Shown: positions 2,981-35,002 of the stretch, piece after piece
Position numbering within the stretch: the stretch's first letter is position 1
Layout of the letters: every line of letters begins with the position of its first letter
DNA from: Pyrenophora tritici-repentis
Taxonomy: Eukaryota > Ascomycota > Dothideomycetes > Pleosporales > Pleosporaceae
Assembly: GCF_003171515.1 (NCBI RefSeq)
Contig: NC_089390.1
Span: forward strand, 5,022,001-5,086,000
DNA length: 64,000 nt
Direction of reading: 5' to 3'
Notes under the pieces: model-generated
What the model saw: only the letters and a program-made list of their open reading frames with translations
What the model was told of the DNA's origin: nothing
Database searches by the model: none
Program-made: the position numbers and the translations under genes

Positions 2981-4249
2981 TGTGTGGGGTAGCGTGTGTG
3001 TGGGTGTGAGTGTGGACGGATGATGGGCGGACACGGAAGACGGAACACAAGAGCCAAGAGTCGTCTTGTTTTGAGCACGCAAGCTGACGAAGCTTATGGT
3101 CGCAACATCAAGTTGTACATTAGTTATGATAAGAGTAACCGTAAAGGGTGTTCGGTAACGCTGAATTGCTGATCACTTATGTTTGATGATACGGTTCAAC
3201 TCCACATGAGTACCACAGTTGCTGGAGGAACACAAGAGCACACGTGGCGGTGGTTTCTGATTGGTGGTAAAGGGCGTGAGTGTGATAATATAAGTTCAAT
3301 ATCGGTAGTTATACGATACTATTTTTGTTCGTTTCTCTAGATGCTGTGCCGAGGCGAATGGTATGACTCGTTTTGTGTAGTATATCTGCGAGGGCGATAT
3401 GATTCAAATAAGAATGAGGATGAATGGGCTTGTCTTGTTATTTATTTAACTTTTAGACATTGTCAAGGACAACATGACTATCTTTCTTGGAAGGCAACTT
3501 GTGTATAGTACCCACGGGCCTCATTATGGTATGCTATCCCCCTCCGATCCAGGAGTCGATCCAGATACATACAACCATGCAGATGGAACGACTCTTCGTG
3601 CAGACTAGTACACATATACATTTTCGGGCGAATTTGTTCGCTTCTGCCAAATCTCCTGTGGCCGGAATTCGCGGAATCTGGATCTTGTCCCGACGCGTGC
3701 CTGCGTCCGTATAGCTAAGTTACAGGGTGTACCCCTCGGCCCGTTTATCTGATTTCTAATTAGAAACACCTAAAAAACGCCTAGGTACCTTTTGTGAGTA
3801 AGCCAGTGTTTGGAAACATAATACATAATCTGGGGGCTGATCTAGTGCCGAGAGATCCGACTGGGTTGAAATACGAAAATGCGGTGGTTCTGTTGGTACG
3901 TACGTCACTTGTACATATGCACGCCTCCTTCTCGCACTGCTGAATACGCATGAAATTGCACAGCCCATGATTCGGCTGGACTCTCGGTCGTAAGATGACC
4001 ACCTACCTACCTAGGTACTGACATTTCTTTGGTGGCTCGAGTTTTTGACACCGCCTCTCGGTCGCTTCCACCTTCTTAGAATCGTTACCTTCCCAATTGG
4101 AATACGAAAAGTACCTGGGGATTAATGCGGGTATTTATATTACCACAGAGGTTGAAGATGTATATAAGACTGGCTGTGTTCGCGCTCATCAGAAAAGTAC
4201 CCACCTCTTCCACCACTATTCCCTTAAGCTACTTACTAATCTATCCAAC
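2981..4249. other. Intergenic, divergent promoter region
   Basis: I see no convincing gene. Short open frames on both strands lack conserved-looking sequence. The stretch separates the minus-strand gene at 2117-2980 from the plus-strand secreted protein at 4250, so it should hold both promoters. Confidence 0.6.
4161..4168 (+). promoter_or_regulatory. TATA box of the secreted-protein gene
   Basis: TATATAAG lies 89 bases before the ATG at 4250, a normal TATA-to-start spacing for a highly expressed fungal gene. Confidence 0.6.
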
Positions 4250-23283: not shown

Positions 23284-24975
23284 CTATACTCTACTACCAT
23301 TAATGGCTCTACCGTCTAGTTCTGTTACATCATACCGTTCCACAGGAAGTTCCAGAGGTCCTGCTGGCGCCATACTATACGTAGGCAATTTTACATCCAC
23401 AGTCTCCATATCTTGTTCCCCTGCGATCCTTGTTGCAGAGTCGCCTGATCTTCGTCTCCGATGCAACAAGAAGCCAATGATGGCGAGTATAGCAATACCT
23501 CCCACCGCACCCGCAGCTATCCCGCCAATTGCGCCACCCGATAGCTTTGACTCTTGAGTTTGTGGAGGAGATGTACTAGAAGACGTAGGCAAGGGTACAG
23601 TCTTTGACGAGCCGTCCGGAGAGTCCGCGCAAAACTCGCTGACAAAGTTGTTTTGTTTATCCACCGCGACGATTTCGGAAGTCTTTGATCCGGTGTTGGC
23701 TTGCCAGACGGAGAACCTCCCAGCTTCTTGGTTGACCATTACGTAGGCAGAGCTCATGAACAGTCGGCCAAGGACTGGTAGATCGTTGTCATTCTCGGAC
23801 TGGAGCGAATTGATCACGACCGATGTGTTCGTCTGAACTGCGCCATCGGCGGCGATATATGTGTCGGGGACGACTAGTTCGGTGTTGGGAACATTTATAG
23901 AAATGCTGTTTTAAAGCTTGATTGTCAGACCGCCGTAATAACTACATCATGATGATTAGCTGTATGTTTGGCGAACAGAATTGGCACGGCACTTACACAT
24001 TATTCGGGTCGAAAAGCATTGTGAAGTAATTAATACCGAGACTTCTTGCTTCGCTCCTCCCATCTGGAGGAGTTCCGCCTGCGAGTGACCGGAAGTTGTC
24101 GTAGTATCTCAATGGAAGGGACATCAGCCCTGCAAAACTAGGACTAATACACGCTTGTATGACCGCTGACTGCGATCCCATGAAGATGCTCATATCGGTA
24201 CCATTCGGCCAGTTGAGAAGGATATCGCTTATCGTTACCACCATGCCTGTCCCACACTTTCCGCCCTGGAACAGCGGCGCTGTGAAATTGATGTTTTGAT
24301 CCGCGATCAACGATTTGTCCAGGCCACCAAGAACAAGTGAACCTGTGGTCTGCTTTTCAGCGGGACCACCGACTAGCCCCCAGAATATGGAGTATGCTCT
24401 TGTGCCGATATCGCCGGCGGATAAGAGTGCTTGCAGAAAAGATGAGTTGCTGCCTAAGCCGAGTTGAGATTGGCTGGTGAAGGCTTGATTGAGGTCCTGT
24501 CTCGGCACGCCGAACTTAAATGATGATAGCGAGGTGTTGGTGCCAAAGCTCAGAGTATCTTCTGTCCAGTCCGCTTCGAAACCTGCACTATTCTTTCGGT
24601 TACCGATCGATCTGTCCGTGGAGGATTTTGTGTATGCGCCGCCGCGGAATGTTACGCATGCTCCAGATGAGTAGGTATCTGTACAGTACCCGTTTGTTCC
24701 GTAAATGTAGGTCTCGTTGTTGTCACTATAAGGGGTGTTAGTCAGCTATGCCAGATCCTCTAGCTCGCCGAGATTTTAGTATTTTCCATCACCACAAACG
24801 AGAAGATAGAAAGACCGGTTGTAAGAGACTTGCAATCTGTATTTAAAGACGTACCCACTAGCGAAGAATGATATGTTCTGCTTATTGGAGCCAACAGTCA
24901 TGGAAACCCCTCTTACAAAGGCTCCATTAGGCAAAGATACATTCTGAATAGGGGCGACAACAGGCAGAGGCTGGC
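23284..24975 (-). pseudogene. Pepsin-fold (peptidase A1-like) membrane protein, interrupted
   Basis: Exons 24975-24855, 24725-23997 and 23941-23284 join in phase through GTACGT...ATAG and GTAAGT...GTAG introns. They cover the pepsin fold, a Ser/Thr stalk, a membrane helix (GGIAAGAVGGIAILAIIGFLL) and a cytosolic tail with RRRR. Where catalytic pepsins have DTG or DSG, this protein has FFASG in the first lobe and LFDPNN in the second, so it was probably not a protease. Such proteins may act as surface receptors; this is inference. Two defects are seen. A Copia element at 24976-30317 cuts off the N terminus, whose remnant lies at about 30323-30520. A TAA codon at 23913-23911 breaks the last exon in a conserved strand (GLTIKL, stop, NSISINV). 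Confidence 0.8.
24971..24975. repeat. Target-site duplication CTGGC (left)
   Basis: CTGGC directly before the left LTR; the same five bases follow the right LTR at 30318-30322. Confidence 0.92.
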
Positions 24976-25201
24976 TGTCAGATTGTGATGGGTTATCAAA
25001 GACGGGGATAATAGTATAATAATATGATTGGGATCGATTGTATTGTTCTGGTCTGATGTCGTGTGTTCTGTTGTCCAACGCTGTTCGATCAGTTGGGTCG
25101 CGGTGGATTGTGCGCGCTGACTAATTTAACTGATCCACAGAATCCACAGCTCCGAACACCCGGATTTTGTCCACCACCCAAAATATGCCCATATTCTGAC
25201 A
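24976..25201 (-). repeat. Copia 3' LTR (left copy)
   Basis: 226 bases starting TGTCAGATTGTGATGGG and ending ATATTCTGACA. By reading it matches 30092-30317 base for base. Confidence 0.95.
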
Positions 25202-25212
25202 CACCCCCTCAG
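25202..25212 (-). other. Copia polypurine tract
   Basis: On the element strand the bases directly before the 3' LTR read CTGAGGGGGTG, a purine run at the place where plus-strand priming is expected. Confidence 0.6.
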
Positions 25213-25232: not shown

Positions 25233-28200
25233 TTAACCACAGCTAAGCTGCTCTAATTGAGCTTGGATCTCTACAACAGGTGACTGATTGTGTGGCTCTC
25301 GATCCCTAACTTCGACCAGCCCTAGTTGGATCAGAAAGCCCGTCCACTGGTTTACTGGGAGTACTTTGGTGAGGCCATCAGCTATCATCTCAGAGGATTT
25401 TGTGTATACTACTTTGATCCTCTGGTTCGTCACTTCCTGTCGGAGCCAATGGTTGTGGATATCTACGTGTCGGAGCTTCGTGGTGAGTCTTGATACTGCT
25501 TGAGTTACAAGACGGATCGTCTGTTGATTGTCGCATTGGATAGTGATCGTAGGACTCGGTAGCTTAACCTTAAGTTCACTGATCAATCGTGAGGTAAAGA
25601 TCGCTTCTTTGGCTACTTGTGAGAGTGCTAAGAGCTCTGCTTCAGTTGTTGAAGTAGTGACGGTATCTTGCTTGCTAGATCGCCAGGCGATCAGCCCGCC
25701 GAAGAGTTTAATCGCGTAGCCCTGAGAGCTTTTGCGATCCAGAGTGTTGTCTGCAAATGATGCGTCACTGGCTACCTGCATAGCGGTGCCGCCACCCAAT
25801 CGTAATGTCAGCCACTTAGTGTCGGATAGGTAGAGTAACACTCGATCCGCAGCCTGTTGGTGTTCCTGACTTGGGTTGGCGAGAAATCTGGCTAGTCTAG
25901 ACGTCGCAAAAGCAATATCCGGGCGTGTATTGACAGCGGCGTAGAGGAGAGAGCCAATCTTCCGCTGGTATCGATTGATCTCAGACGGGGTAGCTAGTCC
26001 TTCTCTGGGCATGAGCTCGCTGGTCGCCATAGGAGTATCGTGGCGGATTGTCTGATCGTCCACTAGTCTATTGATCTTTTCATAGTAGGCAACCTGGGAG
26101 AGGTGGATCAGTTGTTTGGATCGATCCCTGATCACCTCGATCCCAAGGAACCACTGTAGATCGTCTCCACCAGTGATGGAGTATCGCTGCTTGAGCTGAT
26201 CCATTGCTTCTTGAGCCTTCTTGGATTGATCCTTGCCATAGGCTAGGATGATATCGTCTACGTAGTAGAAGATGATGATTCCGTCTTTGATCATACAGCA
26301 GGGCTCGTGGGGTACAATCTGGAACCCAAGTTGAGTGAGCGTCGCTGTGAGATCCTTCTGCCAAAGGAGTGGGGATATTCTTAGCCCATAAAGAGCTTTC
26401 TTGATCCGTAGGATAGTGCCGGGCTTCTGATAACCCTTTGGCATCCGCATGTAGACCTCTCGATCTAACGATGCGTGGACGAAGGCGTTGGTAACGTCGT
26501 ACTGTTTTAGTTCAAGATTGTGTTTGGCAGCGATTGCCATAAGTAGTCGAAATGATCGGCTAGCTAGAGTAGCGGCGTAGGTGTCTTGGGAGGTGATATT
26601 GCGCTGCTGATCACCCCGCACAACTAATCGAGCTTTGCACTTAATGAATTGATTGGCTTTGTTAAATTTGTAGACATACACCCACATGCAGTCTAGAATC
26701 TGGTGTCCTTTAGATTTAGCTGCTTGGTAGGGTACTTCTTCCCACGAATTGGTGACTTTGTGGCTGTCGAGATGTGCACGTTGTGCTTCTTTAAATAGCT
26801 CTCCTAAAGGGTGCTGATCAAGATCAGTCCTGGCTGTCGGTGGATCAGGAAGTTGTGATTGATGGATCTTGACTCCTTTGGCGAGTAGCCGGTGAAGTTG
26901 TGCCTTGTCGATTGGGCTTCCATTGTGAGTGCCTATAGTCCCTGCCTTTAATCCAGCCATGAACGCTGCGGCCCATGGAACTGTTTTGGATGATTGGATC
27001 TCAGGAGTGGATCGAACATTTCCACTCATAAACTGGGCGAGCAGGACTGCTGGTGGAGGTGTTGATGGAGGAGTTGGGTAGTGATCTTGGATCTTTCGAC
27101 CATTGTAGTACCCTGGCGGATCTTCTTCCTCCTCTGTGGTATTGATGCTTTCGTCGTCTTCATGAAACGACTCCGTCCCGGTGTCTGGGATCGGTGGTGG
27201 GAGCTCGATAGTCCTAACGTATGCTGCGATCTCTGAAAGAGTGCTGTGCATAAGGCTATCCATTAGGTCTTCAATTGTCCCATCAAATATTGTATTTTCG
27301 TCGAAGGTCACGTCTCTTGTGCTGATGACTTTGGCGAGTGATGGGATCCAAATCCGATAGATATTGGATGATTGATATCCAACTAGGTAGCCGATCCAGG
27401 CTTTTGGATCAAGCCGCTGTAGTCTTGATTTGCCTCTGTGGGTATCATCAGTCATCGCAAAAGCTTTGCACCCATAGGCTTTGAGGTATGCTAGGTAGGG
27501 CTTCTTGATCGACGTGACTATCCCATTTGCTAGTGATACGCGCGTGAAGAATACTTCGTAGGGTGTTTTCCACTGGTTACTGTAGTTTGGCGTTCGATTG
27601 TAGAGGTGTACAGCAGCCCGAGTGATCTCTGGCCAGAGTTCCCATGGTAGATTGGCGTCAAGTCTCATTGTGCGTGCCTTCTCCTTATTCACACCCCCTG
27701 AGCGTTCAGCTCCACCGTTTTGAGCTTGAGTATCTGGTGCTGAAGGCTCGACAGCAATGCCTTGGCCTCTGATCCATCGCTCGACGTCTGGTTTGACTGT
27801 GGTGATCTCGTTGTCGGTTTCGATCACTTTTGGGGTGATGTTGTATTGGTTTTGGAGGAAAGTGAGGAAATTGGATAGTACTCGGATGATCGATTTCGCC
27901 GTTCGGTTATCTGTGAGATAGAAATCCCACTGAAATCGCGAGTACCTATCGGTAATTAGCAATTGGCTTTTCTCTTTGTTGTAGGATTGATTCTCATAGG
28001 AGTGGAAATCAATGGCGAGCCTCTCTGCGGGTCCCTGATCATTGATCCGTGGAGCGCGGCTGATCTGTCGTCGGATTTTCGCTCGGCCACACGCATCGCA
28101 CTGCACTGTCGTTACCCCTTTAACTCGCACCCCCTCAGCTTGCTGGACTAGGTGCTCGATCGCTGCTGGCCCTGGGTGTCCCAGTCTTTTGTGCCAGAGG

Positions 28201-28697
28201 AGAGCAGGCGCCTGTTGGGGTCGCCGGCGCGTTCGGGACGTTTGTGAGTGGGCGTGTAGGGCTACTCTGTCCTCTGATCCATTTGGCCGATACTCCAGTA
28301 CCCATTGACCATATAGCTCTGCCAGCTCGCAGACGGTTGATCCATCTGATCGCTTGACCGCTGTGGGATCCGATTGGGTATCCCACCAGAGTCCTTGCTT
28401 TCTCAGTACTCTAAATGAGACGATATTGCAGAGGATGTCTGGGCAGATTGCTACGTCGTGGAGCACGAGTTTCTCTACTCTCTGTTTATGTTCAAGCTGT
28501 ATGACTATTGATCCATATCCCTTGATCCAAATCTGGCTATTGCCTGCCCATATGAAATCTCCATGGATCGGTGGCCGATAGTTGTGGATCCGATCGGGGT
28601 TGTTCGTGATATGGCACGTCGATCCTGAGTCAAAGATGAAGGAGTTGCTTAGTGGGTAATCGTGCCGATTCGATAGGGAGGATACAGCGGCGAACAT
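25233..28697 (-). CDS. pol: Copia pol polyprotein
   Basis: A 1154-residue frame. The order is aspartic protease with FDSGST; a GAG-pre-integrase zinc region (WHKRLGHPG ... CDACGRAK); and a DDE integrase core with Asp in LAIDFHS, Asp in ETDNE and Glu in GGAERS. Then come reverse transcriptase with YYVDDI and RNase H with DASFAD and TSTTEAELLAL. It makes the enzymes for cDNA synthesis and insertion inside virus-like particles. The ATG at 28697 is only 33 bases after the gag stop and lies in the same frame. Pol is therefore probably made as a Gag-Pol fusion by reading through that stop, not from its own start. No internal break is seen, so the element may be active. Confidence 0.93.
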   Translation of the reverse strand: MFAAVSSLSNRHDYPLSNSFIFDSGSTCHITNNPDRIHNYRPPIHGDFIWAGNSQIWIKGYGSIVIQLEHKQRVEKLVLHDVAICPDILCNIVSFRVLRKQGLWWDTQSDPTAVKRSDGSTVCELAELYGQWVLEYRPNGSEDRVALHAHSQTSRTRRRPQQAPALLWHKRLGHPGPAAIEHLVQQAEGVRVKGVTTVQCDACGRAKIRRQISRAPRINDQGPAERLAIDFHSYENQSYNKEKSQLLITDRYSRFQWDFYLTDNRTAKSIIRVLSNFLTFLQNQYNITPKVIETDNEITTVKPDVERWIRGQGIAVEPSAPDTQAQNGGAERSGGVNKEKARTMRLDANLPWELWPEITRAAVHLYNRTPNYSNQWKTPYEVFFTRVSLANGIVTSIKKPYLAYLKAYGCKAFAMTDDTHRGKSRLQRLDPKAWIGYLVGYQSSNIYRIWIPSLAKVISTRDVTFDENTIFDGTIEDLMDSLMHSTLSEIAAYVRTIELPPPIPDTGTESFHEDDESINTTEEEEDPPGYYNGRKIQDHYPTPPSTPPPAVLLAQFMSGNVRSTPEIQSSKTVPWAAAFMAGLKAGTIGTHNGSPIDKAQLHRLLAKGVKIHQSQLPDPPTARTDLDQHPLGELFKEAQRAHLDSHKVTNSWEEVPYQAAKSKGHQILDCMWVYVYKFNKANQFIKCKARLVVRGDQQRNITSQDTYAATLASRSFRLLMAIAAKHNLELKQYDVTNAFVHASLDREVYMRMPKGYQKPGTILRIKKALYGLRISPLLWQKDLTATLTQLGFQIVPHEPCCMIKDGIIIFYYVDDIILAYGKDQSKKAQEAMDQLKQRYSITGGDDLQWFLGIEVIRDRSKQLIHLSQVAYYEKINRLVDDQTIRHDTPMATSELMPREGLATPSEINRYQRKIGSLLYAAVNTRPDIAFATSRLARFLANPSQEHQQAADRVLLYLSDTKWLTLRLGGGTAMQVASDASFADNTLDRKSSQGYAIKLFGGLIAWRSSKQDTVTTSTTEAELLALSQVAKEAIFTSRLISELKVKLPSPTITIQCDNQQTIRLVTQAVSRLTTKLRHVDIHNHWLRQEVTNQRIKVVYTKSSEMIADGLTKVLPVNQWTGFLIQLGLVEVRDREPHNQSPVVEIQAQLEQLSCG

Positions 28698-28727
28698 GGC
28701 GTCGATCTTCGATATCTGTCGTCCATT

Positions 28728-28733
28728 TAGTCA
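28728..28733 (-). promoter_or_regulatory. Candidate gag-pol readthrough site UGA CUA
   Basis: On the element strand the gag frame ends GAT GAT TGA CTA AAT GGA and continues open in the same frame into pol. UGA followed by CUA is a known leaky stop context. It is the only stop between gag and pol. Confidence 0.6.
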
Positions 28734-30044
28734 ATCATCAATAAGATTAGGTGTAGGAGTTTGGGACTGCTTAAGTCTTGGAGTATGAGTCCTTGGGCGA
28801 CCTTGGGCTCTCAGGAGACTCTGAAACTCAGCGTCATGTTCTCGTCTGAGCTCCACGAATTGGGCTGTTCTTGGATTGGGTTCCCACCACTCCGGAGCTT
28901 TCTCAGTATACACGTAGAAGCAATCACGGAGGGCATGCCCCATGTCACATGCTGGACATTTGGGGCCTCTGGCGTCTGCGATCACAGTTTTACCAGGCAC
29001 GGCGTCCGCTTTGGCGGAGTTACCGTAGGCGTACGATCTTGCGCTTTTGCCTCTTCCTCTTGGAGGGATTGAAGAGCTTGGAGGTTCGCGATCGCCTTCC
29101 TCTATAGCTGTACGTTGATATCGGGGTCTGCCCCGTTTTCTGACTTGAGAGTTTCCCGTTTCCACATGGTGGGTGTCCCCATCCACGCGCTGGTCAGCGT
29201 TGCTGTTCGCAGCAAGAAATACAGATGGATCATCCACTGCAAAAGCTGCCTTTTGGCTTCTGTTTCGCGTGATCGGATGATTCAGCATCATATACTCTCG
29301 GAACCGTCTCATCATGTCCTTCTGGGTTACCCCAGGTTGATCCATCCCATTGGATTGGAAGGTTGCTGCCCATATTGGGGCTATTTTGTTTACTGCCGAC
29401 ATAAAGTCTACAGCTACTGATCTAAACTGAGTAGTATCAGGCACCTTAAGTGTCTCCGCTTCAGTTACAGCTTGATTGTACTCGGCGAGCCAGGTATCCC
29501 AGTTATTCGCGGATCGAGGTGGTTTAAGAGCACTGTAGTATCGCTGTCGCGCTTGCTCTCGTTCGGTTTCGATAGTGATGCCCACATGGGCTCGAAGGTT
29601 CTTGATCCAGTCTCTGATCGATCCATCTGGCGGACAGCAGGTGCGCTGTAGGTGAACCGCGACGGTAGATTGGACGAGGATCATAATGTGTTGGAGATTG
29701 GTTATCTCAGTCTTGTATCTGGCGTACTTTGTTTTGTATTGCTCCATTTTGAGTTTGTAGATCTCAAGATCGTCCTTGTAGGCTCGTTGTCCCGCTGAGG
29801 ATAGATCTGATAGTCTAGTTGGATTGGCTCCTGCAGGGAGTCCAGTCGATGGCGCGTAGTCGGCGCACTCCGGGAGCTCCGGAGGGAACGGCTCCATCAG
29901 TGGCAGCTTTGTCCCATCAGGATTGACCTGTTCCCATATATTGTAGGTGACACAGCGCGCTTGGAGTTGGCTGTACCAAGCGCGATAGTCGTGCTCGTCG
30001 CGTAGGAGCACTGTCGCGTTCTGTTGGTTGGCTTGAGCGGTCAT
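28731..30044 (-). CDS. gag: Copia Gag
   Basis: 437 residues from an ATG 48 bases inside the 5' LTR. The N-terminal two thirds are helical and capsid-like, with the segment YRAWYSQLQARCVTYN typical of Copia gag (UBN2-type). A basic region and a zinc knuckle CPACDMGHALRDC follow; its spacing is CX2CX3HX4C, one residue shorter than the usual CX2CX4HX4C. Gag forms the particle shell and binds the element RNA. The frame ends with UGA at 28733-28731, in frame with pol. Confidence 0.9.
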   Translation of the reverse strand: MTAQANQQNATVLLRDEHDYRAWYSQLQARCVTYNIWEQVNPDGTKLPLMEPFPPELPECADYAPSTGLPAGANPTRLSDLSSAGQRAYKDDLEIYKLKMEQYKTKYARYKTEITNLQHIMILVQSTVAVHLQRTCCPPDGSIRDWIKNLRAHVGITIETEREQARQRYYSALKPPRSANNWDTWLAEYNQAVTEAETLKVPDTTQFRSVAVDFMSAVNKIAPIWAATFQSNGMDQPGVTQKDMMRRFREYMMLNHPITRNRSQKAAFAVDDPSVFLAANSNADQRVDGDTHHVETGNSQVRKRGRPRYQRTAIEEGDREPPSSSIPPRGRGKSARSYAYGNSAKADAVPGKTVIADARGPKCPACDMGHALRDCFYVYTEKAPEWWEPNPRTAQFVELRREHDAEFQSLLRAQGRPRTHTPRLKQSQTPTPNLIDD

Positions 30045-30081
30045 AGCGATTTGGTTGTTGGATTATTGGTAGGGCGGATGA

Positions 30082-30091
30082 GACTCTTAAT
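30082..30091 (-). other. Candidate primer-binding site (half-tRNA type)
   Basis: The ten bases next to the 5' LTR read ATTAAGAGTC on the element strand. They are complementary to GACTCTTAAT, the anticodon stem and loop of a tRNA-Lys(CUU). Copia elements are known to prime with a 5' tRNA fragment cut in the anticodon arm; the tRNA match here is from memory of conserved loop sequence. Confidence 0.45.
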
Positions 30092-30317
30092 TGTCAGATT
30101 GTGATGGGTTATCAAAGACGGGGATAATAGTATAATAATATGATTGGGATCGATTGTATTGTTCTGGTCTGATGTCGTGTGTTCTGTTGTCCAACGCTGT
30201 TCGATCAGTTGGGTCGCGGTGGATTGTGCGCGCTGACTAATTTAACTGATCCACAGAATCCACAGCTCCGAACACCCGGATTTTGTCCACCACCCAAAAT
30301 ATGCCCATATTCTGACA
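30092..30317 (-). repeat. Copia 5' LTR (right copy)
   Basis: 226 bases, TGTCAGATTG...TCTGACA, matching 24976-25201. As the 5' LTR of a minus-strand element it should hold the promoter. Confidence 0.95.
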
Positions 30318-30322
30318 CTGGC
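30318..30322. repeat. Target-site duplication CTGGC (right)
   Basis: CTGGC directly after the right LTR; pairs with 24971-24975. Confidence 0.92.
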
Positions 30323-30530
30323 ATTGGCTTCTCGCAAAGGAAGATAAATGTATAAGCCCCCAGAATAGTTAGAATAAGCTTGTGGAGGGACCCATTGCAA
30401 TACTCGGTTTTGAAGATTAACTTGCAAGGGAGGGCTAAGAAGAGCAAGGAACTGCTGGTATAAGGCAACAACGAGGCGGCAAGGCCATCGCAGGAGATAA
30501 GATCTGAATGAGTGGAGTACCATATCCAAA
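30323..30530 (-). pseudogene. Displaced N-terminal remnant of the pepsin-fold gene
   Basis: Minus-strand sequence open in two overlapping frames with signal-peptide-like content (TSSSLLFLALPC in one frame). None of the frames joins the downstream exon without a stop or an unproven intron, so this end may have decayed in addition to the Copia insertion. Confidence 0.4.
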
Positions 30531-30677: not shown

Positions 30678-31103
30678 GACGATTAAGAAACGGGTCGGTC
30701 TTTGCCTGTTTCTAATTCGTTGTTGCAATCAGATTTTGCGATAATCGCTGGGATACAGGCCTGGCTCACGTCCGACTGCCGTGTCGGTGTCTTAATAAAG
30801 CTGAGCTGTGCAGCAATGCTACATCGTAAGATTGCGCGCTGCGATAATTGTCTCCTTCTCTTCTTTGCAAGAGACGCATTTCGGGTTCCCTTATAGGATA
30901 TGTCTTAGGCCGTGCGACCCAGTTGTTCTTCGCCGTCTCTAAGCATTCCATATCACCCGCGTACGCTACAACCACGCATCGGAGTCGCGATCGAGAGAGA
31001 AATCAGAATTTGTGCGCGAGGAAAGCTCGAAACGAATACCTGAACCGAGTTGTCACATGTTCATTTCAATCACCTCTCGAGTACCCCATCAACTTGCCAA
31101 ACC
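30678..31103. other. Promoter region of the DUF3431 gene
   Basis: No gene is supported. The sequence is of normal composition again after the repeat at 30562-30677. Confidence 0.5.
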
Positions 31104-32173
31104 ATGCTGCGCTCACGCAGAAAAATTGAGGTCATTGTGGTAGCAGTGTTCTTACTTTGCGCATGGTTCCTCTTTGACGCCCATTTCCATGATCTCCAAG
31201 AAGAAAGCGTCGAGGCTAGCGCGGCTAAGAAGCTATGGAGATATGAGGCAACAAAAGCAGGAAAAGAGCAAAAGACTATAGAGCAGGAAATTGCGCATAG
31301 CACGACGAAAGAGGAAACATCGCCGACCTCCACTGTCCCGCAACATTCAAGCACATTAACGCACAGTACCACAGTCGCGACACCCAGCCCATCGTTACCT
31401 GATCGTGTTGTGGTAATGGCAAAGCTTCCCGAAGATGAAACAGACTGGGTACAAACCGACCTGCAAGACTGGCAATCAGCCATCTACAACATCGACACCG
31501 AAACGCCACACAACACATCGACTCTCGATCCGCTCACCAACAGCACCTTACGTACCCTTCGAAACAAGGGGATGGAAGCAAATGCATACCTCGCATACAT
31601 TGTGCAAAATTACGACAACCTGCCTTCAACAATCGCGTTCATTCATCCGCACAAAGATGGCTACCCGCTCGCCTGGCACACCGACAACAGCGAACATTCC
31701 AACGTGGTATCTCTGCAAAGCCTCAACATCAACTTCATCCAAAGCAATGGCTATGCGAATTTACGTTGCGTCCACGATCCCGGTTGTCCGCATGAAGTGA
31801 TGCCGTTCCGAGACCCACCTGAGGATCATCGAACGATCGAGGCAGCGATGCCGGATGCGTGGCGAGATTTGTTCAATAATAACGATGTGCCGCACATACT
31901 GGCGACTCCTTGCTGCGCGCAATTTGCTGTGTCGAGCAAGCAAGTGCAGAAGCGGTCTTTGGACGAGTACAAGAAGTTTTATACGTGGTTGATGGAAACT
32001 TCGCTGAAGGATGAGACTAGTGGAAGGGTGTTTGAGTATCTTTGGCATATACTGTTTGGTCAAGACCCTGTTTAGTAAGTACCAAATGAGGGGATTGGGA
32101 TCCGCAACTGCTGACTTTGATAAGCTGTCCTGCATACGAGAAGTGTTATTGCGATGTTTATAACAAATGTTGA
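31104..32173 (+). CDS. DUF3431 protein, single-pass membrane, lumenal domain
   Basis: Exon 1 is 31104-32074 and exon 2 is 32125-32173. The 50-nt intron (GTAAGT...ATAAG) restores a proper Cys-rich end, YCPAYEKCYCDVYNKC. The product is about 339 residues: a short basic cytosolic tail, a membrane helix (IVVAVFLLCAWFLF), a Thr/Ser-rich stem and a DUF3431 domain. The domain shows DWQSAIYNID, NKGMEANAYLAYIV, FIHPHKDGYPLAWHTD and ATPCCAQFAVS. Type II topology is typical of Golgi glycosyltransferase-like proteins, and DUF3431 is thought to be related to them; the activity is unproven. Without the second exon the frame would stop at 32075, losing the final cysteines. The gene is intact although it lies inside the mobile-element island. 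Confidence 0.9.
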
Positions 32174-32792: not shown

Positions 32793-33824
32793 TTATTTGA
32801 TATATTTACCCTTCAAGCATGACAAATGTTCATCCTGCTTCAAGAAATCTCCACCGTCTTGGTACGCCCTGAGAATTCCAGAATTTCGCTTGTGCACTTG
32901 CGCGACCATGCGGTCAATAGCATCCGTAGTCTGCTCCTCGAGGATTTTCTCATTTGCCTCTTTCGCTTCTTCACGAATTTCATGGAGACGCTTGAGCCAG
33001 TACATCCATCTCCATGGGGTGAATCCAGTTGGTGATCGCTTCCCGAATTCGGATTCTAGAAAGTTATGCCCACCCTGCCCAATCTTGCTGGGACAATCAT
33101 TCCATGAGACATCGCAGAGTTGGACAAGAACGTGACCAGCCTCTTTGACCCACACACACACAGCCGGCATAAGCTGCATCAAATCAAGAGTCGAGATCCA
33201 CTGATGTGAAGCAAGTTCATCTGGCTCCCCTCCGACAATCACGCGTCTTTCCTCAAAAGTAGAGGAGAACAGAACAAGACCGATCTGACAGATTCGATCC
33301 TTGCTAACGCGGGTCGACGCCAGCTTAGCTAAGAAGGACGCGAGATTGAGTCGCTGAGCGTTTTTCAAGGTCGCGCAATTGTTGATCCAGAATTCGGTCA
33401 TGTCCGTGGCCAGGAAGGGGAGGTCATTCCACACCGTGCCATCGACTGTTCGTGCGATATCGATGCCGTAGTTCCCAGTCACGGGCCTGGTCAACGGTCC
33501 CAGTCCCTGAATTCGGACGATATCGAGGACCAAGCGGTCGTGATCGTACGTATCATGTGCCGTGTGCACACTAAGCTGGTAGTACATGTGCCACATAGAA
33601 TGAATGTGGTGTACCAGAGAATCTATACCATCTCCTAGGCTGCAGTATCGATTGCTGACAACCCCAGCTCGATTATAGAAAGCTGCTCCGCGGAGCTCAT
33701 TAAATTCCCCACGCGCCACAGATTCACGAACGCTTAGCATATCCTTAGCCATTTCGTCTAGCTTGTTGAGTTCAGGAGGGCCCTCTGGCGAGGGGCTTAG
33801 TAGAGCATCACGGAGGTGATGCAT
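32793..33824 (-). CDS. DUF3632 family protein
   Basis: A single exon of 343 residues. The C-terminal half carries the DUF3632-type core: GGHNFLESEFGKRSPTGF, then PWRWMYWLKRLHEI and a Glu/Ala-rich helix ending DAIDRMVAQV. The middle has FWINNCATL and a helical repeat-like region. There is no signal peptide or membrane segment, so it is probably cytosolic or nuclear. Members are widespread in filamentous ascomycetes as uncharacterised cytosolic proteins and their role is unknown. The frame is complete with no RIP-type stops. The family name is from recognition of this motif order. Confidence 0.78.
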   Translation of the reverse strand: MHHLRDALLSPSPEGPPELNKLDEMAKDMLSVRESVARGEFNELRGAAFYNRAGVVSNRYCSLGDGIDSLVHHIHSMWHMYYQLSVHTAHDTYDHDRLVLDIVRIQGLGPLTRPVTGNYGIDIARTVDGTVWNDLPFLATDMTEFWINNCATLKNAQRLNLASFLAKLASTRVSKDRICQIGLVLFSSTFEERRVIVGGEPDELASHQWISTLDLMQLMPAVCVWVKEAGHVLVQLCDVSWNDCPSKIGQGGHNFLESEFGKRSPTGFTPWRWMYWLKRLHEIREEAKEANEKILEEQTTDAIDRMVAQVHKRNSGILRAYQDGGDFLKQDEHLSCLKGKYIK

Positions 33825-35002
33825 GTCGAGTTCGCGGTGGTGTTTGTGTTGTTCAATAAGTCAGTAGAGTGCAGGAAGAAGGATAAGAGAGAAAGGAAAG
33901 TACTTCCGGACATGCTTTTAAACCTAGTCTTCTTGTGACGGTTTGGGTGGCTAATAGACCAAAATCCCATAGATCCACCTCATCCTAATGTAGATTAGAT
34001 TGGAGCTTGAACGCTGTTGATCAGGCCTCCTGAGTGGGCCACTATTTTGTTCTAGCGACGTCAGCACCCGTATGAGCCTTCTGATAGCGTCCGCGGGGCG
34101 CGTGAAAGTCATGCTGATCCCTATTGCTGGTGTCTGCCTTGCCTCAGGGTGTGGAGTAGTGTTTGGCATAGAGAAGCAAGGGACCAAGCAGCGGCAAGAC
34201 TCAGTAATACGGGAGGTCAAGAGGCCCCTGCATGTATAGGCACGCTTGACCCTTGCACAGGATGCAGGTGCAGTGCACATCGACTTGCTGAAGGTGCGAC
34301 AGCTCCACCTCACAATTAGCACTAGCTCGGCAGAATCCCACCGGGGATTACACCAGCCTTGGTCTTAATAGTAGAGGAAAGGTCGGCATGAGTCTGTTGC
34401 TAGGAAGGTGATAGGACTTCGGGAACTTGGCAGATAGTGAACAAGCTATGATTGGTAAGAAGCGACCGCAAGTTCAAGCGTTATTCAGAAATTCGCCAAA
34501 TATTGATGCACAACTCCGCGATGGCTCGTTCAACTATCTCGGTCAGCTCTTCCAAGACGCTTCAAATACCAATGGGAACGGGGGCGCATGCCGTTGTGGT
34601 ATGATCGAGCATTGATAGCTCGATCGAATACAAATATTAGCGCCGCCTTACCTTCACAATTACTTGACCTCTTCATTACATGTTTGTGTGATGACTCGGG
34701 CCACGGTAATGTTATTACGAAGCGAATAATTTATTAGTCAATCGATGAGAGATTTAGTCCATTGCATTGAGTACAATCTAAGACTATACCGTGACTGGCC
34801 ACATGTTGAGCCACCCCACCAACATGTACATGAAGTTAGATATGAAGCTGTAGAGCCACTGCAAATCGTGATTATATTGCGATAACTTGGCGTTGTGCTA
34901 TGTACATGCTTGCGAAACTTTTATACTATGAAGATTTTTTTTGGTGCTGTTATTAATCGTGTTCGTGTCGTTTTGGGTGGAGCTGGCGATGCAGGTTGCG
35001 CC
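33825..35002. other. Gene-free stretch next to transposase remnant
   Basis: Short open frames only (for example 33951-34322 minus and 34427-34615 plus), with no recognisable domain. It ends in a run of ten C (about 35011-35020) just after the transposase frame. Confidence 0.5.

What the first reader, a model, noticed from the sequence alone, without database searches (positions are those of the whole stretch)
28698..28760. Copia gag and pol separated only by UGA in a leaky CUA context
Most Copia elements make Gag-Pol from one continuous frame. Here gag (30044-28731) and pol (from 28697) are in the same frame, with just one stop, UGA followed by CUA, between them. UGA-CUA is a well-known readthrough context in viruses and some cellular genes. 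Together with an otherwise open and apparently young element, this suggests that readthrough sets the Gag:Gag-Pol ratio. A chance nonsense mutation is the alternative.
Basis: partly seen in the sequence, partly recalled or inferred. Interest (0 to 1): 0.75.

Follow-up and report, generated by a model that had tools for sequence, protein, structure and literature searches.

The report
Fungal retrotransposon with conserved leaky stop
A jumping gene in a wheat leaf-spot fungus keeps one stop signal, in a context known to be leaky, exactly between its two genes, and divergent relatives in the same genome keep it too, so the stop looks like a working part of how it makes a little of its second protein.

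Summary
A young Copia element (LTRs 226/226 identical, 5-bp duplication) has gag and pol in one frame, separated by one UGA followed by CUA (28733-28728). It is not a chance nonsense mutation: of 89 gag-pol junctions read in the same genome (very probably Pyrenophora tritici-repentis), 87 have UGA at that place; the other two (UAA, CAA) lie in mutation-scarred copies. The 87 fall into six sequence types, pol about 57-100% identical to the window's, with mostly saturated synonymous sites. The next codon is CUA in 68, CCA in 18, CUG in 1. Right after the stop all types keep Gly-Arg with synonymous changes. One subfamily has no in-frame AUG before pol codon 175, beyond the protease. Two lack any AG before the conserved Gly, so no shared intron. 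This favours stop-codon readthrough making Gag-Pol. No stable conserved RNA structure was found, so local sequence may suffice. The primer-binding site places it in the published FunCo1 clade. The kind is known (Tca2, VdLTRE5, fission-yeast Tj1/Tosmo); the conserved UGA-C context in FunCo1 was not seen described in the papers searched. Efficiency was not measured.

The parts
30318..30322 (-). target-site duplication GCCAG, 5' side
30092..30317 (-). 5' LTR, 226 bp, TGTCAG...CTGACA
30081..30091 (-). primer-binding site ATTAAGAGTCT directly after the 5' LTR, the PBS printed for the FunCo1 clade
   Evidence: for the sequence; (PMC5445492 section 10) for the name
28731..30044 (-). gag open reading frame, 437 aa plus UGA
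28920..28958 (-). zinc-knuckle-like CPACDMGHALRDC in Gag
   Evidence: read; motif name recalled, no Pfam hit above cut-off in Gag
28731..28733 (-). UGA stop between gag and pol
   Evidence: same place in 87 of 89 junctions
28728..28730 (-). CUA after the stop (readthrough context); CUA in 68, CCA in 18, CUG in 1 of the 87 UGA junctions
28719..28724 (-). conserved Gly-Arg codons (GGA CGA here) right after the stop, with synonymous variation between subfamilies
25233..28730 (-). pol open reading frame in the gag frame, 1165 aa
28620..28631 (-). DSGS, protease-like active-site motif (pol codon 34)
   Evidence: motif name recalled
27735..28034 (-). integrase core (rve, pol residues 233-332; 31.0 bits, just under the 32.6 cut-off)
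26070..26714 (-). reverse transcriptase RVT_2 (pol residues 673-887)
25202..25210 (-). purine-rich GAGGGGGTG before the 3' LTR (likely polypurine tract)
   Evidence: function recalled
24976..25201 (-). 3' LTR, identical to the 5' LTR
24971..24975 (-). target-site duplication GCCAG, 3' side

Best explanation
The element is a recently transposed FunCo1-type Copia retrotransposon. Its mRNA is translated into Gag, which ends at UGA 28733-28731. A minority of ribosomes decode the UGA with a near-cognate tRNA, helped by the following C(U), and continue in the same frame to make Gag-Pol. This gives much Gag and little Pol from one transcript. Shown: the stop, its conservation, selection on both sides of it, youth of the copies. 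Inferred: that readthrough occurs, that UGA-CU is what makes it leaky, and that its rate sets the Gag:Gag-Pol ratio.
For: UGA at the junction in 87 of 89, in six sequence types with pol identity about 57-100% and gag identity about 38-100% to the window over the matched parts. Among 21 pairs of representatives dS exceeds 1 or is saturated in 20 at the gag end and in 19 at the pol start; C vs C' gives dN/dS of 0.21/1.18 (gag end) and 0.116/0.664 (pol start), so both sides are under purifying selection. Gly-Arg in nucleotides 7-12 after the stop in all 8 representatives, with GGA/GGC/GGT and CGA/CGC/CGG/AGA. No in-frame Met before pol codon 175 in subfamily B, protease motif at 35. Copies with the UGA have multiplied recently: eight window-type copies differ at 0-4 of 3,043-3,218 compared positions, and four LTR pairs differ by 0, 0, 0 and 1. 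17 of 25 Gag homologues end within 10 residues of the same aligned point. CUA after UGA is enough for readthrough in the fungus Ustilago maydis (PMC4207609, passages). Fission-yeast Gypsy elements keep GAA-TGA-CT at the same place (PMC10085805, passages), and Tj1 with its stop removed shows virtually no transposition (PMC4600332, passages).
Against: No translation or protein data. Subfamily D (18 junctions) has CCA, so CUA cannot be required. The 300-nt junction of the Copia element Tca2, also UGA, gave no readthrough above control in baker's yeast (PMC2194720, abstract and discussion), so a UGA between gag and pol does not prove context-driven readthrough. In this host the GAPDH stop is UAG, one triosephosphate-isomerase-family gene has UGA-AUU and another UAG, and PGK has UAA: no UGA-CUA among these four. 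One old copy has CAA at the place (L067), and two B copies carry a second stop four codons further on (L023, L057). All junction DNA comes from one genome; copies within a type are not independent.
Confidence: 0.87

Rival explanations
1. Chance nonsense mutation in one element or one master copy, which kills or is complemented in trans.
For: The window alone would look like this; some copies do carry extra stops.
Against: Same UGA in six divergent types with mostly saturated synonymous sites, and UGA-bearing copies are the ones that multiplied.
Confidence: 0.02
2. An intron removes the UGA from part of the transcripts, giving Gag-Pol from spliced RNA. Public gene models join gag to pol this way.
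For: Gene models such as P0005, P0006, P0041, P0135 and P0002 skip the stop. D and E have two GTRNGY sites each upstream, weaker GTR sites occur in all types, and B, C and D have AG right after the stop.
Against: The models join at different points in different copies. A, B2, C and C' have no GTRNGY in the 300 nt upstream, and A and E have no AG between the UGA and the conserved Gly codon, so no shared splice-site pair exists. No RNA data were available.
Confidence: 0.04
3. Pol is made separately by internal initiation or from a junction promoter, as with the minor promoter found in Tca2.
For: The first in-frame Met of pol is at codon 12-14 in A, C, C' and D1, and at 19 in D2 and E, all before the protease motif. 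Tca2's junction has weak promoter activity.
Against: Subfamily B has no Met before codon 175, beyond the protease motif, and conserved codons begin before any Met.
Confidence: 0.04
4. Readthrough is real but is driven mainly by remote sequence or by a structure or pseudoknot not seen here; UGA-CUA is only permissive.
For: D lacks CU; Tca2 precedent; pseudoknots and sites hundreds of nt away were not tested. D has a GGCC...GGCC hairpin beginning 6 nt after the stop. RNAalifold drew one 5-pair helix, 4 of its pairs with changes on both sides in some sequences, but 3 pairs are broken in 3 of 8.
Against: No fold stands out in any of 8 sequences (z -0.84 to +2.25), and the consensus structure is only -0.4 kcal/mol. 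In U. maydis CUA alone suffices.
Confidence: 0.25

Closest known systems
FunCo1 Copia clade of Pezizomycotina (PMC5445492; section 10 and passages seen)
   Same: PBS ATTAAGAGTCT directly after the 5' LTR; abundant in P. tritici-repentis (75 LTRharvest copies in their Table 1).
   Different: The held main text has no occurrence of 'stop codon' or 'readthrough'; the gag-pol arrangement of FunCo1 was not among the passages seen.
Copia element VdLTRE5 of Verticillium dahliae (PMC3441728, passages)
   Same: Filamentous-fungus Copia with gag and pol separated by UGA; authors infer leaky termination.
   Different: Two copies; authors looked for CARYYA and found none. Whether it has CUA or belongs to FunCo1 was not tested here.
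Copia element Tca2 (pCal) of Candida albicans (PMC2194720, abstract and discussion)
   Same: In-frame UGA between gag and pol.
   Different: Candidate 3' pseudoknot; its junction did not direct readthrough in S. cerevisiae.
Gypsy elements Tj1, Tosmo1-3, Tcry1 of fission yeasts (PMC10085805, PMC4600332, passages)
   Same: GAA-TGA-CT(A/G) at the gag-pol junction, as in types B and C' here; Tj1 needs its stop to transpose.
   Different: Other superfamily (Gypsy), so the shared octamer is most likely convergent (inference).
UGA-CU(A) readthrough of fungal and animal metabolic enzymes (PMC4207609, passages)
   Same: Same minimal context.
   Different: Cellular genes gaining a peroxisomal signal, not Gag-Pol.

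Membership tests
Ty1/Copia (Pseudoviridae) | integrase before reverse transcriptase in pol | tested here: met
   rve 233-332 (just under its cut-off) and RVT_2 673-887
Ty1/Copia (Pseudoviridae) | LTRs with TG...CA ends and 5-bp target duplication | tested here: met
FunCo1 clade | PBS ATTAAGAGTCT | tested here: met
FunCo1 clade | position among reference FunCo1 sequences in an RT/RNaseH tree | not tested
   reference sequences not at hand; own tree only shows the UGA types in one clade (92/91) apart from three other Copia elements of the genome
Readthrough-expressed LTR elements | gag and pol in one frame with one stop between them | tested here: met
Readthrough-expressed LTR elements | measured Gag-Pol fusion or reporter readthrough | not testable with these tools
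   none
UGA-CUA(G) readthrough motif | UGA followed by CUA | tested here: met
   window and 68 of 87 UGA junctions; not met in type D (CCA, 18) and E (CUG, 1)
UGA-CUA(G) readthrough motif | G after CUA | tested here: not met
   window has A; B and C have G
MuLV/Tca2-type readthrough with 3' RNA structure | stable, conserved structure shortly after the stop | tested here: not met
   pseudoknots not covered

The most novel reading that the evidence does not exclude
The FunCo1 Copia clade and the fission-yeast Gypsy elements have independently settled on the same structure-free cassette, GA(A/U)-UGA-CU, as the dial of their Gag:Pol ratio, and subfamily D has moved to UGA-CCAG with a compensating nearby hairpin: a natural series for learning what makes a stop leaky in filamentous fungi.
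Probability: 0.4. Interest if true: 0.6.

Novelty: new member of a known kind. Interest (0 to 1): 0.45.

Why it matters
It turns a rare, case-by-case remark (UGA between gag and pol in a few fungal elements) into a conserved feature of an abundant fungal Copia group, with several natural context variants that a simple reporter can rank. It also offers a reason why automatic gene models of these elements place introns at this point.

Tried and rejected
Chance nonsense mutation, splicing and internal initiation were tested on the sequences and rejected. A 3' RNA structure was sought and no stable conserved one found. Host genes with UGA-CUA: GAPDH, two TIM-family genes and PGK looked at, none has it. 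Relatives in viral contigs: 21 stretches matched a pattern, none confirmed. Exact tRNA-Lys match of the PBS: the 14-mer complementary to the PBS and the next three bases occurs at 11 places, whose coordinates lie next to window-type gag matches; a recalled 15-mer anticodon stem-loop is absent, so the tRNA-Lys link rests on the paper only. Rows not counted in the 89 junctions: L009-L014 (duplicates of window-type places already in L001-L008), L088 (no pol match), L024 and L068 (junction missing in the stretch). L001 and L003 are identical even in their short flanks and may be one insertion or an assembly duplicate; both are counted. Many further matches listed were not fetched. Of the 25 Gag homologues the 8 that do not end at the common point are P0122 (piece of the window's own Gag), P0128, P0134, P0138, P0135 and P0002 (gene models), P0143 and P0144 (shorter).

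Full report
What is there. On the minus strand of the window lies a complete Copia element: 5' LTR 30317-30092, gag 30044-28731, UGA 28733-28731, CUA 28730-28728, pol 28730-25233, 3' LTR 25201-24976. The LTRs are identical over 226 of 226 bases, and GCCAG is duplicated on both sides. Pfam finds in pol Pol_BBD, gag_pre-integrs and rve (the last two just under their cut-offs), SH3_retrovirus and RVT_2 in Copia order; Gag has no family above its cut-off. The eleven bases after the 5' LTR, ATTAAGAGTCT, are the primer-binding site printed for the FunCo1 clade (PMC5445492, section 10 read). The window lies in an unnamed 40.9-Mb, 41-contig genome. Proteins named PtrM4 (Pyrenophora tritici-repentis) are listed on contigs whose lengths equal several of its contigs, so the host is very probably that fungus.

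Is the stop an accident? A search with the first 732 residues of pol listed 65 matches, gag gave 168 matches, partly listed, and a second pol query listed 150; all three searches score only the best candidates. I fetched 92 distinct places (98 loci less 6 duplicates) and could read 89 junctions: 87 TGA, 1 TAA (L066), 1 CAA (L067). L066 and L067 lie in copies whose gag shows 20 and 34 extra stops, mostly TAG and TAA, the pattern of repeat-induced point mutation (interpretation recalled). The 87 fall into A (9, the window's type, CTA AAT), B (14, CTA GAA), C and C' together (45, CTA GAT), D (18, CCA GAA) and E (1, CTG TAT). Copies within a type are not independent, and L001 and L003 may be one insertion; the types are the independent evidence. 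Pol identity to the window is about 68-69% for B, 61-65% for C and C', 58% for D and 57% for E, with some partial copies outside these figures. Gag identity over the matched part is about 45% for B and 38-43% for C, C' and D.

Selection. Among 21 pairs of representatives dS is above 1 or saturated in 20 at the gag end and in 19 at the pol start. The exceptions are D1-D2, nearly identical (dN/dS 0.012/0.014 and 0.007/0.032, too little change to say), and C-C' at the pol start. C against C' gives dN 0.21, dS 1.18 over 109 gag codons and dN 0.116, dS 0.664 over 180 pol codons. After the stop all eight representatives keep x-Gly-Arg with synonymous changes. So codons from 6 nt after the UGA onward appear to be translated in the gag frame, and the UGA itself is kept where silent sites have been randomised. 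Two B copies (L023, L057) carry a second stop four codons later and are presumably dead.

How is it passed? Internal start: in B the first in-frame Met of pol is codon 175, while the protease-like DSG is at 35; the other types have one at codon 12-19. Splicing: A, B2, C and C' have no GTRNGY in the 300 nt upstream (weaker GTR sites occur), D and E have two each, and A and E have no AG between the UGA and the conserved Gly. Public gene models that fuse gag and pol do so at different points in different copies (P0005, P0006, P0041, P0135, P0002), as expected of annotation artefacts. What is left is decoding of the UGA. In Ustilago maydis three nucleotides CUA after UGA suffice for efficient readthrough (PMC4207609, passages). 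Folding 100 nt from the stop in eight representatives gives z-scores from -0.84 to +2.25. The consensus structure is one 5-pair helix at -0.4 kcal/mol; four of its pairs show changes on both sides in some sequences, but three are broken in 3 of 8. I read this as no stable conserved structure; pseudoknots were not tested. Type D lacks CU but has a short GGCC...GGCC hairpin 6 nt after the stop, an untested lead; the same bases encode the conserved Gly-Arg.

Activity and age. Eight window-type copies differ from each other at 0-4 of 3,043-3,218 compared element positions. In four of eight both frames are open as far as read (all of gag and 543 codons of pol). Of four LTR pairs, three are identical and one differs at one base, each with its own 5-bp duplication. 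Elements with this stop have therefore transposed recently.

Beyond this genome. Of 25 Gag homologues, 17 end within 10 residues of the same aligned point; one of these is named, from Exserohilum turcicum (P0132). Five gag proteins share source and longest-contig length with separate pol proteins: P0124/P0018, P0129/P0076, P0133/P0004, P0139/P0009, P0140/P0042; that they share a contig is inferred. The stop codon itself cannot be read from these. In a 20-row tree all UGA types fall with those separate-gag relatives (92/91), next to relatives of unknown junction (P0099, P0086, P0094, P0109, P0115, P0104) and apart from three other Copia elements of the same genome, L109-L111. L111 has gag and RT domains in one 1525-aa frame; for L109 and L110 a joint frame is inferred from its length and the position of YVDD. 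Two of these three rows have long branches, E is only 20% filled and the root is a midpoint, so the tree is rough. In the same genome 31 of 81 PF14223 Gag matches lie in open frames of at least 1487 aa, that is, single-frame Copia families. A scan of viral contigs found no confirmed relative.

Against the reading. Host GAPDH, two TIM-family genes and PGK do not use UGA-CUA. The Tca2 junction did not direct readthrough in baker's yeast (PMC2194720). Type D does without CUA. No efficiency is known. All junction DNA is from one genome.

What is known. VdLTRE5 of Verticillium dahliae is a Copia element with UGA between gag and pol, for which leaky termination was inferred (PMC3441728, passages). 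Fission-yeast Gypsy elements share a strictly conserved GAA-TGA-CT (PMC10085805, passages), and Tj1 without its stop shows virtually no transposition (PMC4600332, passages). In mammalian work the bases before the stop also change readthrough strongly at a fixed UGA CUA G (PMC12233894, PMC9841425, passages). Two surveys of fungal elements gave no relevant passage for the terms searched (PMC3248453, PMC3562529). The FunCo1 paper's held main text has no 'stop codon'. My searches (listings only beyond the papers named) showed no paper describing the UGA-CUA context in FunCo1; Gao et al. 2003, the survey most likely to bear on it, is not held (its content is recalled only). The finding is therefore a well-supported new member of a known kind.

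Noticed in passing
window 23284-25120 (minus strand) and the flank at 30323: The element sits beside, and may interrupt the 5' part of, a gene with a weak eukaryotic aspartyl-protease match (PF00026, E 0.0099, below its cut-off, in one of three pieces searched).
   Followed up: partly
L061-L063, L071-L085: Subfamily D has UGA-CCA-G instead of UGA-CUA, yet several copies keep pol frames of 1243-1337 aa and its first 120 pol residues are 97.5-100% identical between copies, so it too seems recently active.
   Followed up: partly
P0005, P0006, P0041, P0135, P0002: Public gene models of these elements fuse gag and pol at differing points that skip the stop.
   Followed up: partly
L065, L066, L067 (contigs C4, C5, C8): Old window-type copies carry many TAG/TAA stops, the pattern of repeat-induced point mutation; L065 keeps TGA, L066 has TAA and L067 CAA at the stop position.
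   Followed up: partly
window 31044-32075 (+) and 32793-33860 (-): Neighbouring genes match DUF3431 (PF11913) and DUF3632 (PF12311).
   Followed up: no
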